Positions 1,706 through 63,446 of a stretch of DNA of 63,611 nt are shown one piece after another; the first letter of the stretch is position 1, and every line of letters starts with the position of its first letter. Below the pieces are notes generated by a model. The model saw nothing but the letters and a program-made list of their open reading frames with translations, did no database searches and had not been told where the DNA came from. A program made the translations under genes and the position numbers. This stretch comes from Syntrophomonas sp. DTU018 (GTDB lineage Bacteria; Bacillota; Syntrophomonadia; Syntrophomonadales; Syntrophomonadaceae). The stretch is taken from assembly GCA_001513155.1 (NCBI GenBank), contig LFSR01000007.1, forward strand, positions 1 through 63,611. Direction: 5' to 3'.

Positions 1706-1811
1706 TTAGTCGTACATCTACGTCAGAGCAACAGATATTTTCACAGCCTGAATAACAGGCCACGATAAACGAAAACTTAAGCCTGTCATCGCTATGAAAG
1801 GAATTCTTAAT

Positions 1812-1910
1812 TGTCATTGCGAGCCCCGACGGGGCGTGGCAATCTCATTCATAATCAGCCGGGCTTACCGGTTGAGATCGCCACGTCGCTTCGCTCCTCG
1901 CGATGACACA
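1812..1910. repeat. REP-like ~95-bp palindromic element, copy 1
   Basis: The left end TGTCATTGCGAG and the right end CTCGCGATGACA are near-inverted copies and bracket a 60-70 bp middle. The same ends recur at 4739, 20009, 27487, 27615, 31343 and 31532. The preceding bases (about 1745-1811) belong to a shared flanking module containing AACAGGCCACGATAAACG. Confidence 0.75.
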
Positions 1911-2005
1911 GCGCAGTCATTTTCACAGCAATCACTTTAATATCTTTTCCTGCATAAAAGCCGATCTCCCTAGCTAAGCTACTAAAAACAGCGGGGGTAA
2001 ATGAT

Positions 2006-3812: not shown

Positions 3813-4724
3813 ATGAAAGAACAGGTCACCATTGCCAGCCGGGAATTCGCCCTTTCCAACCTGGACAAGGTGCTCTGGCCGGAAGATGGTTATACCAAAG
3901 GGGAATTGATAAATCATTATGTCCAGGTAGCTCCCTATCTCCTGCCCCACTTAAGGGGGCGCCCCCTGGTATTGACCCGTTTTCCCGACGGTATCCGCGG
4001 CAAGAGCTTTTATCAGAAAAACGCCCCTGATTACCTGCCGGAATGGATCAGAACCTTCTCCTGGTATTCCACGGATTCCCAGCGGTATATCAACTTCATA
4101 GTGGCAGAAGAACCGGCTGCTCTGGCCTGGCTGGCCAATCAGGCCTGTATAGAAATGCACCCCTGGCTGTCCAGCATCCCTACCCTTGATTACCCTGACT
4201 TTGTGGTGATTGACCTGGACCCTTCCAAGGGAAGCAGTTATCAGGATGTAATCTCCATTGCTCTGCTAGTCAAGGAACTGCTGGACAATCTGGACTTACG
4301 CTCTTATCCTAAGACTTCAGGATCAGAAGGATTGCATATTTACATCCCCATCGTGAATTCCTATACCTATGAGCAGGTCCGCAAATTTGCCCAGGCAGTG
4401 GCATCCCTGGTGGCGGAAGTGCTTCCCAAAATAGCTACTATTGAACGCAGCGTAAAACAGCGAGGCAGCAAAGTATATGTAGACTACCTGCAAAATGCCC
4501 TGGGCAAAACCCTCAGCAGCGTATACAGCGTGCGTCCTCGTCCGGGCGCTCCTGTATCCACTCCCCTGCTGTGGGAGGAAGTACCCCAGGTAATGCCCTC
4601 TCAGTTTACCATCAAGACCATATTCCCCCGCCTGCAGGAAAAGGGCGATTTGTTTGCTCCTGTTTTATACGACCGGCAAAGTCTGGACCACGCCTGCCGG
4701 AAATTGGGAGTGTCTTTGCTGTGA
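3813..4724 (+). CDS. ligD: LigD-type polymerase/primase (PolDom) of NHEJ
   Basis: A stand-alone LigD polymerase domain of 303 aa that extends and trims broken ends before ligation. The archaeo-eukaryotic primase motif with the two metal-binding aspartates is seen as FVVIDLDPS; KTSGSEGLHIYIPI is the second family signature, and the C-terminal YSVRPRPGAPVSTPL matches the family's nucleotide-binding strand. Translation is placed at the ATG at 3813 because a strong GAGGAGG sits 7 bases upstream; an in-frame ATG at 3792 would overlap the ligase stop but lacks such a site. It is the last gene of the ku operon. Confidence 0.93.
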   Translation: MKEQVTIASREFALSNLDKVLWPEDGYTKGELINHYVQVAPYLLPHLRGRPLVLTRFPDGIRGKSFYQKNAPDYLPEWIRTFSWYSTDSQRYINFIVAEEPAALAWLANQACIEMHPWLSSIPTLDYPDFVVIDLDPSKGSSYQDVISIALLVKELLDNLDLRSYPKTSGSEGLHIYIPIVNSYTYEQVRKFAQAVASLVAEVLPKIATIERSVKQRGSKVYVDYLQNALGKTLSSVYSVRPRPGAPVSTPLLWEEVPQVMPSQFTIKTIFPRLQEKGDLFAPVLYDRQSLDHACRKLGVSLL

Positions 4725-4738
4725 AATGGCTCCTTTTG

Positions 4739-4830
4739 TGTCATCGCGAGGAGCGAAGCGACGTGGCGATCCCTTTTTCGCAGCCTGTGTGCCTCCTTTG
4801 AGATTGCTTCGCTGCGCTCGCAATGACACA
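4739..4830. repeat. REP-like ~95-bp palindromic element, copy 2
   Basis: Bounded by TGTCATCGCGAGGAGCG on the left and GCGCTCGCAATGACACA on the right. It starts 15 bases after the polymerase stop and is followed (4831-4880) by the flanking module AAGGGTGACTTTTCGTTCAT seen also near 27.77 and 31.30 kb. It could act as a transcript end or stabiliser for the ku operon. Confidence 0.75.
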
Positions 4831-4928
4831 AAGGGTGACTTTTCGTTCATTATGGTCTGCAATGCAGGTGATAATGTAATAGATGAGCGATTCTGAAAGC
4901 CAAAGGATGCATGCCTCCATCTTGAAAG

Positions 4929-5136
4929 CAGGAGTATTAGCCAGGCGAGGGACGTACGACGAGCCGTTGCAACCCACGGCGCAACTGAGGGCTGCGAAGG
5001 GGAGCGAGAAACAGGACGTTTCGAGTAGCGAGTACTGAGTGCATGGATGCCGAATTACGAGCGGTCCCCTTCGCACCGAAGTAAACCGATGGGTTGCAGG
5101 CGAGGAAGTCCCGGAGCGAGCCGGCTAATACTCCTG
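4929..5136 (+). repeat. 207-bp folded dispersed element, copy 2
   Basis: The best-preserved copy. The 14-base ends CAGGAGTATTAGCC and GGCTAATACTCCTG are perfect inverted repeats. Internal blocks GCAACCCA/TGGGTTGC and TGCGAAGGGGA/TCCCCTTCGCA pair in nested order, giving a single long branched hairpin. The spacer from 4725 to 5190 contains only this element and repeat 4739-4830. Confidence 0.85.
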
Positions 5137-5190
5137 CCAAGTCCAGAAGACGGGGAATAGGAAGACAGGTGTTTAATATGGGGATGAGGG

Positions 5191-18683: not shown

Positions 18684-18757
18684 CTTATTTGCAACACCTC
18701 ATAATCATCACATAATGAACAAACACGATGAATAAAAATATTCGTGCACGTCTTGAG

Positions 18758-18962
18758 CAGGAGTATTAGCCGGGCGAGTGACTTACGACAAGCCGCTGCA
18801 ACACACGGCGAAACTGAGGGCTGCGAAGGGTCGCTCGAAACAGAGTTTTATGCAGCGAGTACTGAGGGCATGGATGCCGAATTGCGAGCGATCCGCTTCA
18901 CACCGGAGTAAGCCGATGTGTTGCAGGCGAGGAGTACCGGAGCGAGCCGGCTAATACCCCTG
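18758..18962 (+). repeat. 207-bp folded dispersed element, copy 3
   Basis: The most diverged plus-orientation copy, 205 bp. The pair GCAACACA/TGTGTTGC replaces GCAACCCA/TGGGTTGC of copy 2, a compensatory C-G to A-T change. The spacer 18684-19058 holds this and a short fragment of the REP-like family. Confidence 0.82.
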
Positions 18963-18990
18963 ACAAACCGTGGTTAGTGTAAATCTGCAT

Positions 18991-19026
18991 GGAGATCGCC
19001 ACATGGCTTGCTCCTTGCGATGACAC
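18991..19026. repeat. Fragment of the REP-like element
   Basis: Only the right end is preserved: GGAGATCGCCACATGGCTTG followed by CTCCTTGCGATGACACA. It lies 33 bp before the murI stop. Confidence 0.55.
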
Positions 19027-19058
19027 AGCATAGATTTTTCACAGCAATAACTGATACT

Positions 19059-19859: not shown

Positions 19860-20008
19860 TCAACCAACACCTCATTATTTGGGTTCGGCAGCCTATTTTA
19901 CCGTTCCCCAACATACACTAAATAATGTATCACTTTTAGGATAATAAAACCAAGTATTTCGCAATTATCACCTGCAGAACAGACCACGATGAACGAAAAA
20001 CTCCAGGG

Positions 20009-20110
20009 TGTCATCGCCAGGAGCGAAGCGACGTGGTGATCTCTTTTCAATATTGCCCATTTATCCTCGTTTGGGATTGCCACGCCCCTATCGGGGCTCG
20101 CAATGACACA
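20009..20110. repeat. REP-like ~95-bp palindromic element, copy 3
   Basis: Bounded by TGTCATCGCCAGGAGCG and GGCTCGCAATGACACA. The left flank (19963-20008) carries the shared module ATTATCACCTGCAGAACAG. The spacer 19860-20219 contains this element and the terminator at 20164 and nothing else recognisable. Confidence 0.75.
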
Positions 20111-27423: not shown

Positions 27424-27486
27424 AAATCTGCCTCCTTAATCATGCGTTACTGCCTGCTGGGGCATTTCTGGGAAAACAACTGCGCT

Positions 27487-27575
27487 GTGTCTTTGCGAGG
27501 AGCGAAGGGACGTGGCGATCTATTTTCGCAGCCTGCGAGCCTCTTTTGAGATCGCTTCGCTGCCCTCGCAATTAT
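27487..27575. repeat. REP-like ~95-bp palindromic element, copy 4
   Basis: Bounded by TGTCTTTGCGAGGAGCG and CTGCCCTCGCAATTA. It is immediately followed by the shared flanking module (27570-27614) leading into copy 5. Confidence 0.7.
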
Positions 27576-27614
27576 CACCTGAATAACAGGCCACGATAAA
27601 TGAAAACTTAAGCC

Positions 27615-27707
27615 TGTCATCGCGAGGAGCGCAGCGACGTGGCGATCTGTTAACTCACACCGTTAGTTGCCATAGAGATTGCCACGCGCTACGCGCTCGC
27701 AATGACA
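27615..27707. repeat. REP-like ~95-bp palindromic element, copy 5
   Basis: Bounded by TGTCATCGCGAGGAGCG and CGCTCGCAATGACA. Its interior (GATCTGTTAACTCACACCG onward) is virtually identical to the copy at 31343, suggesting recent duplication. The region 27424-27896 holds two copies and flanking modules, with no gene. Confidence 0.78.
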
Positions 27708-27896
27708 ATGGGGAGCTATTATCCCAGCCATGACATACTAGGGAAGCCGTTTTCACAGCAATGACACAAAAGGTGACTTTTCATTTATGGTGCCCTGCGC
27801 CGCAGGTGATAATTGCTTTCATAACAGCCCGCGCCAAAGCAGCGTGGGCCATGACAGGCTCATGATTTACATGTATCGTGACCTGTTCCCGGGTTT

Positions 27897-31141: not shown

Positions 31142-31342
31142 TTATATCCTCCTTGTTGTGCACATGTTTGTGCAACGTCCCAAGCTATAAACATTGTATA
31201 GATAATTGCCTGCTTGTCAATGCAGCATACCCCGTTTGCATAATAAAATTCTCAGCTTCTGAGCAATTGTCACCTGGTACGCAGACCACGATGAATGAAA
31301 AGTCACCATTTGTGTCATTGCTGTGAAAATGGCTTCCTTTTA

Positions 31343-31437
31343 TGTCATCACGAGGAGCGAAGCGACGTGGTGATCTGTTAACTCACACCGTTAGTTGCCA
31401 TAGAGATTGCCACGCGCTACGCGCTCGCAATGACACA
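31343..31437. repeat. REP-like ~95-bp palindromic element, copy 6
   Basis: Bounded by TGTCATCACGAGGAGCG and CGCTCGCAATGACACA. It shares about 75 near-identical bases with copy 5 at 27615. Confidence 0.78.
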
Positions 31438-31531
31438 ATTGGGAGCTATTTTCACAGCAATGACAATTAAGAATTCCTTTCATAGCGATGACAGGCTTAA
31501 GTTTTCGTTTATCGTGGCCAGTTCTGCTGGT

Positions 31532-31623
31532 GATAATTGCGAGCCCAGCGAAGCAATCTCAAACGAAGCATACAGGCTGTAAAAAAGATAGCGCCACGTC
31601 GCTTCGCTCCTCGCGATGACACG
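31532..31623. repeat. REP-like ~95-bp palindromic element, copy 7
   Basis: Inverted relative to copy 6: ATTGCGAGCCCAGCG at the left, CGCTCCTCGCGATGACAC at the right. The region between copies 6 and 7 (31463-31531) is the flanking module, inverted relative to that at 1745-1811. The whole spacer 31142-31697 is repeat mosaic without a gene. Confidence 0.75.
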
Positions 31624-31697
31624 AAAGGAAGCTTTTTCCCCAGCAATGAGCAGGTATACATAGTTATAACCCACCCGGGAAAAACTAGGATAATACC

Positions 31698-45253: not shown

Positions 45254-45282
45254 GGATATGCTCTCATTCAACATATAGCATG

Positions 45283-45489
45283 CAGGAGTGTTAGCCGGCG
45301 AGCGACTTACGACGAGCCGTTGCAACCCGCGGCGAAACTGAGGGCTGCGAAGGGGAGCGAGAAACAGGATTTTTCGAGCAGCGAATACTGAGTGCATGGA
45401 TGCCGAATTACGAGCGGTCCCCTTCGCACTTAAAGTTTGCCTATGGGTTGCAGGCGAGGGAGTCACGGGCGAGCCGGCTATCACTCCTG
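45283..45489 (+). repeat. 207-bp folded dispersed element, copy 4
   Basis: Ends CAGGAGTGTTAGCC and GGCTATCACTCCTG. Relative to copy 2 the eighth pair is changed from A-T to G-C on both sides, a compensatory change. Inner stem TGCGAAGGGGA/TCCCCTTCGCA-type pairing is intact. It lies between pdaA and the unknown operon; the remainder of 45254-45577 shows nothing else. Confidence 0.83.
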
Positions 45490-45577
45490 TTTTCTTGATC
45501 GTACCGTACCTTTTGGGACAATTGCGGGGCAGCCGCATTTTAGCTACAATTATTGTAACTATGGTGGGGCTGGGGCT

Positions 45578-55067: not shown

Positions 55068-56375
55068 TCAGAACAAAGTCTGCTCCGTTATCTCCGTAGT
55101 AAGTGCTTTTAGGGCTCTTTCCACTAAACTCCTGCGCAGTGCTCTTTCTTCTTTAATGTCCAAGCTTGGATTTCCTAGCGGGTGAGGTATAGCCACTGCC
55201 GGAACGATGCGATTTGCTCCTACCGTTAAAGATATAGGAACAATAGTACAAATATGAACCACGGGCACATTTACCGTTTCTTCCAATTCTTTCACCATTG
55301 TTGCACCGCAACGAGTACAAGTCCCTCAGGTAGAGGTAAGTATTATTCCGTCAATGTTTTCTTTGGCTAACTCCAGGCCAATAGCATGGGCATATTTTTG
55401 TGCATTGGCTACAGAAGTGCCATTACCTACCGTTGCATAGTAAATGTTGTGAAGGCTGCCAATGATCCCTTCTTTCTCCAGCTGGCGCATAACATCAACA
55501 GGTAATACCCTATCAGGATCCTGATTGGCATAAACTGGATCATAGCCCCCATGGGCAGTCTGGAAAGTTTCCGGAGTCAGATCCTCAATTCCCGTTATAT
55601 CATAGCGTCCAAAGTGGGTGGCACTGGAAGCCTCAATACGGTCAGGATTACCTTTAGGAACAATTCCACCAGAAGTAACCAGGGCAATTTTAGCATGTTT
55701 GAGATCTTTTATGGGCGGACGAGGTGTTACCCGGCTGAAACTGGGCATAGGATATTCGGTCTGGTAAGGTTCTCCCTTTAGCTTCTTTATTAACATTTCT
55801 ACGGCACGGGCGGATCCCCGTTCCTTATGCACGATGTTTACCCTTATTCCTTTTTCGAGATAACCTTCTTCCTCGGGAGTTCCCAATTCCTCTCCCCGTG
55901 CTAATTTCAGAGCCAATTTACTCATCGCAGAAATAGCTTCCCGCATTTTAGCCGCAGAATTTCCGGTTTTGACTATATATACTTGTTTGCGGTAAAGATC
56001 AGCACCTGGATTTTCTTCATACATACCTGTTATGACAGGAATAGAAAATCTTTCCGCTACAGCCGCGCATACAGCACCACATGCCATACCATATCTGCCG
56101 GCATTAAAAGCAGGTCCGGCAATTAAAATCTGTGGCTTGTACCCAGATATCAGATCCAAAATTTCCTGGGTAGCTTTCTCAATATTCTCATTGAAGTAAG
56201 TATCACCGCATATTATAGTACCCACTATTTCAATCTCGGAGCCAAAAGCTTTTTGCAAAGCGGTACCTGGTCCTACCGGTCCATCCTGCTTAAAGGGTTT
56301 GATATCAGCTTTTTCTTCTCCGCCAATTTGCCCGAAGAATTGATTTATATAATGAACAGCTTTCACCGTTGCCAT
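55068..56375 (-). CDS. grdB: Glycine reductase component B selenoprotein (Sec350)
   Basis: GrdB is the substrate-specific large subunit that, with pyruvoyl-containing GrdE products, binds glycine as a Schiff base. The frame contains one TGA at 55326-55328. Read as Sec it gives ILTST-U-GTCTRCGATM, the GrdB active site with UxxCxxC, at residue 350. The 435-aa total is the usual length. The ATG at 56375 is chosen because GGGGAG lies 8 bases upstream; the frame is open nine codons further. A hairpin follows the UGA. Confidence 0.95.
55300..55312 (-). promoter_or_regulatory. SECIS hairpin of grdB (core)
   Basis: GTTGC-GGT-GCAAC forms a perfect stem 13 bases downstream of the UGA; TGT and ACA can extend it across an internal loop. 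The short core makes this less certain than the hdrA and floxD hairpins. Confidence 0.55.
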
Positions 56376-56394
56376 AATAACTGCTCCCCTTTCA

Positions 56395-56871
56395 TTAATC
56401 ATCCATCAGCTCGTCTCTGATATTACGCATTTCGGCAATTATTGCATCGACGTCTAAAACCATTTCCATCATGCTGATTTGATCTTCATAAATCTCGGGA
56501 TCGATTATATCTTTTAACTCAAATATGTGATATACTGATAGTTTTAAGGCAATATTTGTCAGTGGTCCAGCATAAGTAGGATCTCCAGCGATAACCGTTT
56601 CTGCGGTTAGTCCAGCTGATTCTGCCTCCGCTCCGCCTAATACTACTACCACATTTTCTCTCCCATATTTTTCCGCTATCTCTTTAATACGGGCTTGATT
56701 GGCCATGTCCATGGCCCCAGCTGCAGTTCAAACGAAACATTCTGTACTGGTAAACACTATTTCTCCACCAATGGTTTTCATACACTCAGCTATAGCTGGT
56801 CCAGGAATTCCATCACGGTCTCCTAACACACAAATCTTTTTATCAGCAAAAAAGCTTTTATCAATAGTCAT
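56395..56871 (-). CDS. grdA: Glycine reductase selenoprotein A (Sec48)
   Basis: The small acidic carrier that receives the carboxymethyl group on selenium and hands it to protein C. The frame contains one TGA at 56728-56730; read as Sec it gives TECFV-U-TAAGAMD, the invariant CxxU active site. The full protein is 158 aa, as in the family, starting [21 protein letters not shown] with AGGAGG upstream. Calling only the part after the UGA as a gene would miss the active site. It is 20 bp upstream of grdB. Confidence 0.97.
56701..56716 (-). promoter_or_regulatory. SECIS hairpin of grdA
   Basis: GGCCAT-GGAC-ATGGCC forms a perfect 6-bp stem 11 bases after the UGA, in the expected window. Confidence 0.65.
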
Positions 56872-59787: not shown

Positions 59788-59832
59788 TAATAAAACAAAC
59801 AGAGAACAAGTGATCCTTGTTCTCTGTTTGTT
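59788..59832 (-). terminator. Riboswitch-linked intrinsic terminator (grd leader)
   Basis: AACAAACAGAGAACAAG and its complement form a 17-bp perfect stem with loop GATCA on the minus strand, then TTTTATTA. It lies between the glycine aptamers and trxB and is the likely expression platform. Confidence 0.9.
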
Positions 59833-60003
59833 AACCTGAGAGTTTCGCTTGCGCTTGCCCCTTTGGTGTCATCCGACTCTCCAGAGACTGGTCCGAGCTC
59901 GATCCGTTAACCTGAGAGTTTCACATTTTCCAGCGGATCACTGGAAAAGTTTGCTCCTTCGGTGTGAGTATTATACTCAGCTCTCTCGAGCCCATCATCC
60001 CTC
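59833..60003 (-). promoter_or_regulatory. Tandem glycine riboswitch of the grd operon
   Basis: Two successive gcvT-motif aptamers on the minus strand. Each carries the conserved GGAGAGAGC-type start, the CACCGAAGGAGCAA or CACCAAAGGGGCAAGC core, and GAAACTCTCAGGTTAAC end. Two aptamers in a row followed by one terminator is the classical cooperative glycine switch. Glycine should permit transcription into trxB-grdCD. Confidence 0.95.
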
Positions 60004-63279: not shown

Positions 63280-63446
63280 TAACCTGAGAGTTTCACCACG
63301 CGGTTTGCCCCTTCGGTGTCGAATGACTTCCCAGAGGATGGTCGGGGTACGATCCTTTTACCTGAGAGTTTCGCATTTTTCAGGGACAAAAAATGCTTGC
63401 TCCTTCGGTGTGAGCTCGCGCTCCCTCTCTCGATACCCTTCATCCC
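63280..63446 (-). promoter_or_regulatory. Second tandem glycine riboswitch
   Basis: Again two gcvT-type aptamers: the minus strand shows CGAGAGAGGGAGC, CACCGAAGGAGCAAGC, GAAACTCTCAGGTAAAAG, then a second CACCGAAGGGGCAAACC and GAAACTCTCAGGTTAATG. The downstream gcvPA/gcvPB copies are broken. The switch itself looks intact. Confidence 0.94.

What the first reader, a model, noticed from the sequence alone, without database searches (positions are those of the whole stretch)
4929..5136. Four-copy 207-bp element with compensatory base changes: a structured RNA or MITE-like family
Copies lie at 1497-1705 (inverted), 4929-5136, 18758-18962 and 45283-45489. Each has inverted ends around CAGGAGTATTAGCC and nested inner complementary blocks. 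Substitutions preserve pairing: GCAACCCA/TGGGTTGC in copy 2 is GCAACACA/TGTGTTGC in copy 3 and GCAACTCA/TGGGTTGC (G-U) in copy 1; the eighth end pair is A-T in copy 2 and G-C in copy 4. Such changes suggest selection on a folded transcript or on cruciform DNA. No transposase is nearby, and I cannot match it to a named RNA class.
Basis: partly seen in the sequence, partly recalled or inferred. Interest (0 to 1): 0.76.

Follow-up and report, generated by a model that had tools for sequence, protein, structure and literature searches.

The report
Mobile hairpin repeat carrying TwoAYGGAY RNA
The repeated 208-base element is a many-copy, hairpin-shaped genomic repeat whose core is a known but uncharacterised RNA motif (TwoAYGGAY) thought to bind the regulator CsrA, which suggests that this RNA family spreads through bacterial genomes as a mobile element rather than sitting as an ordinary single-copy small RNA.

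Summary
In detail: all four copies lie where stated, and the genome carries 40 full copies (85-100% identical) plus halves and 54-bp deletion derivatives. The element does match a named RNA class. Its core scores as Rfam TwoAYGGAY (RF01731): four copies pass the curated cut-off (43.9-46.1 vs 43); the window's copy 4929-5136 scores 34.5, below it. Two hairpins with GGA loops match the earlier prediction that TwoAYGGAY binds CsrA. In 398 Bacillota genomes, 50 of 51 with TwoAYGGAY encode CsrA, against 235 of 347 without it. TwoAYGGAY is also a dispersed repeat elsewhere (55, 29, 14 and 9 copies per genome). Two of the four sites are empty in two relatives. In one genome 24 of 27 copies sit between 17-31 bp direct repeats that are complete terminator-like stem-loops, i.e. 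apparent target duplications. The 'compensatory' changes are real (26 vs 8 in shuffles) but show no G-U over A-C bias (56:61), so they do not prove selection on a transcript. Best reading: a non-autonomous, MITE-like mobile hairpin that carries a probable CsrA-binding RNA module. The mobilising enzyme, transcription and CsrA binding are untested.

The parts
4929..5136 (+). Copy 2, full-length element (the finding)
4928..4942 (+). Left terminal inverted repeat GCAGGAGTATTAGCC
5123..5137 (-). Right terminal inverted repeat (same 15-mer on the minus strand)
5000..5068 (+). TwoAYGGAY (RF01731) core match, 34.5 bits, model positions 45-113; below the cut-off of 43 for this copy
   Evidence: L001:1601-1669
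5008..5022 (+). GGA hairpin 1: GAAAC-AGGAC-GTTTC (GGA at 5014-5016), on a tandem G.A step
   Evidence: sequence; consensus fold
5028..5062 (+). GGA hairpin 2 with GCATGGATGC tip (GGA at 5045-5047) and tandem G.A steps
   Evidence: sequence; Rfam alignments of the sister copies L020 and L022
1495..1705 (-). Copy 1, full-length, GGA strand is minus
18756..18964 (+). Copy 3; GGA hairpin 1 damaged (ACAGA--GTTT)
18700..19045 (.). Stretch with copy 3 and flanking repeats that is absent from the orthologous site in G001, G002 and G003
45281..45491 (+). Copy 4

Best explanation
The 208-bp unit is a non-autonomous, MITE-like mobile hairpin element that carries a TwoAYGGAY RNA core. SHOWN: it is present in 40 full copies plus deletion derivatives, is present/absent at orthologous sites, and belongs by covariance model to RF01731; that family is a multi-copy dispersed repeat in many Bacillota and in one genome is flanked by duplicated stem-loop targets. 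INFERRED: when transcribed on the GGA strand (by read-through, since no promoter match was found) it folds into a long hairpin with two GGA-loop arms that can bind a CsrA dimer; source elements are kept palindromic and keep their GGA loops, while inserted copies mostly decay. The mobilising enzyme is unknown. Whether the host profits (CsrA sponge, or mRNA regulation) or the element is merely tolerated is undecided; I lean to a mostly selfish element whose GGA arms serve its own expression or tolerance.
For: 40 copies in own genome; 54-bp derivatives, half elements and chimeras with a second GGA-hairpin family. Empty orthologous sites at copies 1 and 3. RF01731: 46.1, 44.1, 44.1, 43.9 bits in four copies, 23 copies at E<=1e-3; full 1-168 alignment in L022/L020. 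Published prediction of two CsrA-binding motifs in TwoAYGGAY (PMC4333381). CsrA in 50/51 TwoAYGGAY genomes vs 235/347 others, Fisher 4.5e-7; all 25 positive families have CsrA, p 3e-4. Multi-copy repeats elsewhere: 55, 29, 14, 10, 9, 8 copies. G161: 24/27 copies have flush stem-loop duplications above every mismatched-pair control. In G038 replaced second hairpins still carry ACTCAGGATGAGT in several copies.
Against: No target duplication or transposase with these ends found for the window's own family. No G-U/A-C asymmetry. Most copies, including copy 2, are below the Rfam cut-off. In co-directional gene pairs of G000 the GGA strand is usually antisense to the genes (22:6), so read-through mRNA would mostly carry the complement. 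CsrA co-occurrence may partly follow phylogeny. No expression data.
Confidence: 0.6

Rival explanations
1. Purely selfish palindromic DNA: the GGA loops and tandem G.A steps are recognition features of a transposase acting on folded single-stranded or cruciform DNA; CsrA and transcription are irrelevant.
For: No G-U preference over A-C within copies or across lineages; near-perfect Watson-Crick palindromes; stem-loop targets duplicated in G161, and once each in G296, G152 and G273; stem-loop-directed transposition is known for IS1272, whose authors proposed whole stem-loop duplication as a possible outcome (PMC5678879).
Against: Strong co-occurrence with CsrA; GGA loops are conserved on one strand while stems and ends diverge completely across lineages; prior CsrA-motif match to TwoAYGGAY.
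Confidence: 0.25
2. Host-serving CsrA sponge: dozens of copies together titrate CsrA, like CsrB/RsmZ but dispersed over the genome.
For: CsrA co-occurrence; two GGA hairpins per copy; up to 55 copies; another GGA-bearing palindrome family in the same genus, and different GGA palindromes at the orthologous site of copy 2 in G002 and G003.
Against: No promoter of its own found; GGA strand mostly antisense to neighbouring genes in G000; resident copies decay without sign of constraint; G003 of the same genus has CsrA but no detectable copy of this family.
Confidence: 0.15
3. Transcription-end element: the palindromes act at 3' ends as bidirectional terminators or mRNA 3' stabilisers, like REP/BIME.
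For: Intergenic, 9 convergent and 28 co-directional vs 2 divergent contexts in G000; terminator-like targets in G161.
Against: The element's own ends have no T-run; in G161 the terminator belongs to the target, not to the element; does not explain conserved GGA loops or CsrA co-occurrence.
Confidence: 0.1

Closest known systems
TwoAYGGAY RNA motif (Rfam RF01731; Weinberg 2010, PMC2864571)
   Same: Two GGA-loop hairpins with tandem G.A steps on a long stem; covariance model matches; Clostridia range.
   Different: Here an extended outer stem ends in a 15-bp perfect inverted repeat, 40 similar copies per genome, presence/absence at orthologous sites; the passages read in the papers do not describe the family as a mobile repeat.
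CsrA-sequestering sRNAs (CsrB, CsrC, RsmX/Y/Z)
   Same: GGA in hairpin loops, pairs of sites.
   Different: No promoter found, only two sites per unit, dispersed repeat rather than a dedicated gene; binding untested.
MITEs and small bacterial repeats (RUP, BOX, Correia, ERIC)
   Same: Short, non-coding, terminal inverted repeats, high copy, deletion derivatives.
   Different: No target duplication and no parent insertion sequence found for the window's family.
REP/REPIN elements with RAYT (Y1) transposases
   Same: Intergenic palindromes, mosaic clusters with other repeats.
   Different: No Y1 transposase in G000 or G038.
IS1272 (stem-loop targeting; PMC5678879)
   Same: Stem-loops as targets; tandem duplication of an end sequence is also seen in some G000 copies.
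   Different: IS1272 replaces the stem-loop without duplication and encodes a transposase; G161 copies duplicate the whole stem-loop and are non-coding.

Membership tests
TwoAYGGAY RNA (RF01731) | Covariance-model score at or above the curated cut-off (43 bits) | tested here: met
   46.1, 44.1, 44.1, 43.9 in four G000 copies; other copies lower, copy 2 34.5. Met for the family, not for every copy.
TwoAYGGAY RNA (RF01731) | Two hairpins with AYGGAY-like loops | tested here: met
   AGGAC/T and ATGGAT loops
TwoAYGGAY RNA (RF01731) | Motif on one defined strand | tested here: met
   Matches are on the GGA strand; GGA strand folds more stably in 24 of 25 representatives
CsrA-binding sRNA | Direct binding to CsrA | not testable with these tools
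   Only co-occurrence and motif
CsrA-binding sRNA | Own transcription unit | tested here: inconclusive
   No sigma-70-like match near copy 2; consensus scan only
MITE | Terminal inverted repeats and multiple dispersed copies | tested here: met
MITE | Target-site duplication | tested here: not met
   None above control in G000; clearly present in G161 relatives
MITE | Autonomous parent with the same ends | tested here: not met
   Unpaired ends in G000 are half elements; G161 DUF772 transposases have other ends
REP/REPIN-RAYT | Y1 (RAYT) transposase in the genome | tested here: not met
   No PF01797 match in G000 or G038

The most novel reading that the evidence does not exclude
TwoAYGGAY as a whole is a class of mobile RNA-bearing hairpin elements that move by inserting at terminator stem-loops, duplicating the whole stem-loop, and that carry a CsrA decoy, so that a selfish repeat has spread CsrA-binding sites over many Bacillota genomes.
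Probability: 0.33. Interest if true: 0.82.

Novelty: new variant of a known kind. Interest (0 to 1): 0.62.

Why it matters
It changes how a database RNA family should be read: TwoAYGGAY, proposed as the CsrA-binding sRNA of Clostridia, behaves in the genomes examined as a dispersed, mobile repeat. That makes two questions directly testable: whether mobile elements seed binding sites for a global RNA-binding regulator, and which enzyme inserts DNA at terminator stem-loops and duplicates the entire hairpin.

Tried and rejected
Rfam gathering search on the window gave only glycine riboswitches and SECIS_4; the TwoAYGGAY match appeared only with relaxed thresholds on single loci. First G-U counts on an RNAalifold structure favoured G-U (43:27), but that structure is biased to G-U-compatible columns; the Watson-Crick-only structure removed the effect. 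Exact-pattern scan of IMG/VR found nothing; blastn against phages and plasmids nothing. Target duplications in the window's family: none above mismatched-pair controls, apart from one match between older flanking repeats. RAYT/Y1 and DUF772 transposases as movers: absent from G000, or with other ends. Empty versions of the flanking A-B compound repeat: not found in the loci held. Literature searches for a description of TwoAYGGAY as a repeat: none found.

Full report
WHAT WAS CHECKED. A search of the window's own genome (G000, 2.56 Mb in 59 contigs) with copy 2 gives 40 full copies on many contigs at 85-100% identity. Same-genus genomes G001 and G002 hold many more, G003 none; genomes of another family of the order (G038, G040, G044) hold diverged versions. 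Contig lengths tie G001 and G002 to a Bacillota MAG (JAKPGY) and Syntrophomonas sp. UBA9860 (DLUN), so the window is from a Syntrophomonas-like bacterium (inference). G038 is a single contig of 2,405,559 bp, which I remember as the size of Syntrophothermus lipocalidus (memory only). G113 has exactly the published size of Thermacetogenium phaeum, 2,939,057 bp (PMC3551663).

ANATOMY. Each copy is one long near-perfect hairpin, about -95 to -115 kcal/mol, with outer arms GCAGGAGTATTAGCC/GGCTAATACTCCTGC and two inner hairpins whose loops hold GGA: GAAAC-AGGAY-GTTTC and GCATGGATGC, each next to tandem G.A mismatches. Across genera the outer stem changes on both sides together (GGAGTATTAGCC, GGAGTGTTAGCC, GGAGTGTGTTAACCC with matching partners). 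In G038 inner hairpin tips are replaced by 90-100 nt modules TCCGGCACTCA...TGAGTGCCGGA; several of those that replace the second GGA hairpin contain ACTCAGGATGAGT, again a GGA hairpin (reading of the sequence).

IDENTITY. Relaxed Rfam scans place the core in TwoAYGGAY, RF01731. In whole-genome searches four G000 copies pass the cut-off and 23 have E<=1e-3. TwoAYGGAY was defined from gut, gamma-proteobacterial and clostridial sequences without a function (PMC2864571); Gardner and Eldai reported two CsrA-binding motifs in it and proposed a clostridial CsrA-binding sRNA, unvalidated (PMC4333381). In an even sample of 398 genomes of the phylum, 51 hold RF01731 and 285 hold CsrA; 50 of the 51 have CsrA (the exception is a 75%-complete genome with a borderline match). 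Fisher p 4.5e-7; on the family level all 25 positive families have CsrA, p 3e-4 (family list compiled by hand, with 140 families assumed).

A DISPERSED REPEAT EVERYWHERE LOOKED. Copies of TwoAYGGAY within other genomes are repeats of roughly 200-300 nt, often 90-98% identical. Copy numbers with full scoring: G161 55, G072 29, G102 14, G284 10, T. phaeum 9, G273 8.

MOBILITY. At the orthologous locus of copy 3, 346 bp holding the copy and flanking repeats are missing in G001, G002 and G003; at copy 1 the site is empty in G001 and G003 and holds unrelated sequence in G002; at copy 2 (between the convergent LigD-type primase-polymerase gene and a metallo-beta-lactamase-fold gene) G001 has the same element, while G002 and G003 have different palindromes, each with GGA hairpins. 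The G002 one is a second multi-copy family in the genus, and halves of both families occur fused in G000 (L295-L297, L306). Six to seven 54-bp units keep only the outer hairpin, apparently by deletion between GGCGAG repeats. No target duplication is detectable for this family.

STEM-LOOP DUPLICATION IN A RELATIVE. In G161 the unit is about 265 bp with ends CAGACTGTAGACAAA...TTTGTCGACACTCTG. In 24 of 27 copies the two flanks share a 17-31 bp direct repeat, flush or nearly flush with the ends, scoring above all mismatched-pair controls (median 19 vs 6, control maximum 13), and the direct repeats are themselves complete stem-loops, often with a T-run as in intrinsic terminators. Similar ends and single such duplications occur in G296 and G152; G273 has one such duplication. 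IS1272 is known to target stem-loops, and its authors considered whole stem-loop duplication a possible outcome (PMC5678879). The two DUF772 transposases of G161 do not share the ends, so the mover is unidentified.

IS THE FOLDED STRAND SELECTED AS RNA? On the 40-copy alignment 13 pairs and 26 cells change on both sides, against 4.6 and 8.0 in shuffles, 0/500 as high; related copies can produce this without selection. A sharper test is that folded RNA tolerates G-U but not A-C. With Watson-Crick-only consensus structures the two are about equal in each genome (56:61, 55:47, 12:11, 4:3, 65:53 cells) and in 25 representatives (internal G-U 19 on the GGA strand vs 16 on the other). Thus resident copies look neutral, and the palindrome may be kept by source-element selection or DNA-level correction. 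What is strand-specific is the set of GGA loops and G.A mismatches, which persist across lineages whose stems share no sequence and make the GGA strand the more stable in 24 of 25.

CONTEXT. In G000 copies are intergenic: 28 co-directional, 9 convergent, 2 divergent; the GGA strand opposes co-directional genes 22:6 (15:4 with stricter gene calls). G001, G038 and G161 lean the same way (8:3, 4:0, 11:5), G044 the opposite (2:11). Gene calls here are longest-ORF only. No promoter match lies near copy 2.

VERDICT. A new variant of a known kind: a TwoAYGGAY RNA carried on a MITE-like mobile hairpin. Membership in the RNA family and dispersal are well supported; mobility by transposition is supported by empty sites and by relatives; CsrA binding is supported only by motif and co-occurrence; a host function is open.

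Noticed in passing
L315-L334 and L216-L221 (G161), L365 (G296), L351 (G152), L274 (G273): TwoAYGGAY units flanked by duplicated complete stem-loops (17-31 bp, terminator-like); in G161, G296 and G152 flush with CAGACTG..ACAAA-type ends. Looks like insertion at terminator hairpins with duplication of the whole hairpin.
   Followed up: partly
L060-L067 (G038): 90-100 nt TCCGGCACTCA...TGAGTGCCGGA modules replace hairpin tips of the element at two or three fixed positions, a modular growth of the hairpin; similar modules occur in G040 (L083, L084).
   Followed up: partly
window 1735-1935, 4724-4875, 19959-20047, 27464-27813, 31261-31649: Other dispersed repeats (GTCATTGCGAGGAGCGAAGCGACGTGGCAATC and TTTTCATTCATCGTGGTCTGC types) form mosaics around the element; a comparable AGACC..hairpin..GAATGAAAA repeat flanks TwoAYGGAY units in G038, G044 and T. 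phaeum.
   Followed up: no
L289-L293, L302, L303 (G000): 54-bp outer-hairpin-only derivatives of the element, apparently deletions between GGCGAG direct repeats.
   Followed up: partly
G002:C103:4933-5133 (L248), L296 (G000): Second GGA-hairpin palindrome family (ends CAGTAGGTTTGCC...GGGTAAACCTACTG), multi-copy in the genus and fused with the first family in some places.
   Followed up: partly
window 55288-56402 (-): SECIS_4 hit next to an ORF with an in-frame TGA (..ILTSTUGTCTRCGA..), looks like a glycine reductase selenoprotein B subunit; three glycine riboswitch aptamer hits at 59821-59998 and 63341-63442.
   Followed up: no
G000, G001, G038, G161 vs G044: Orientation bias of the GGA strand against neighbouring co-directional genes (22:6, 8:3, 4:0, 11:5) that is reversed in G044 (2:11); unexplained.
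   Followed up: partly
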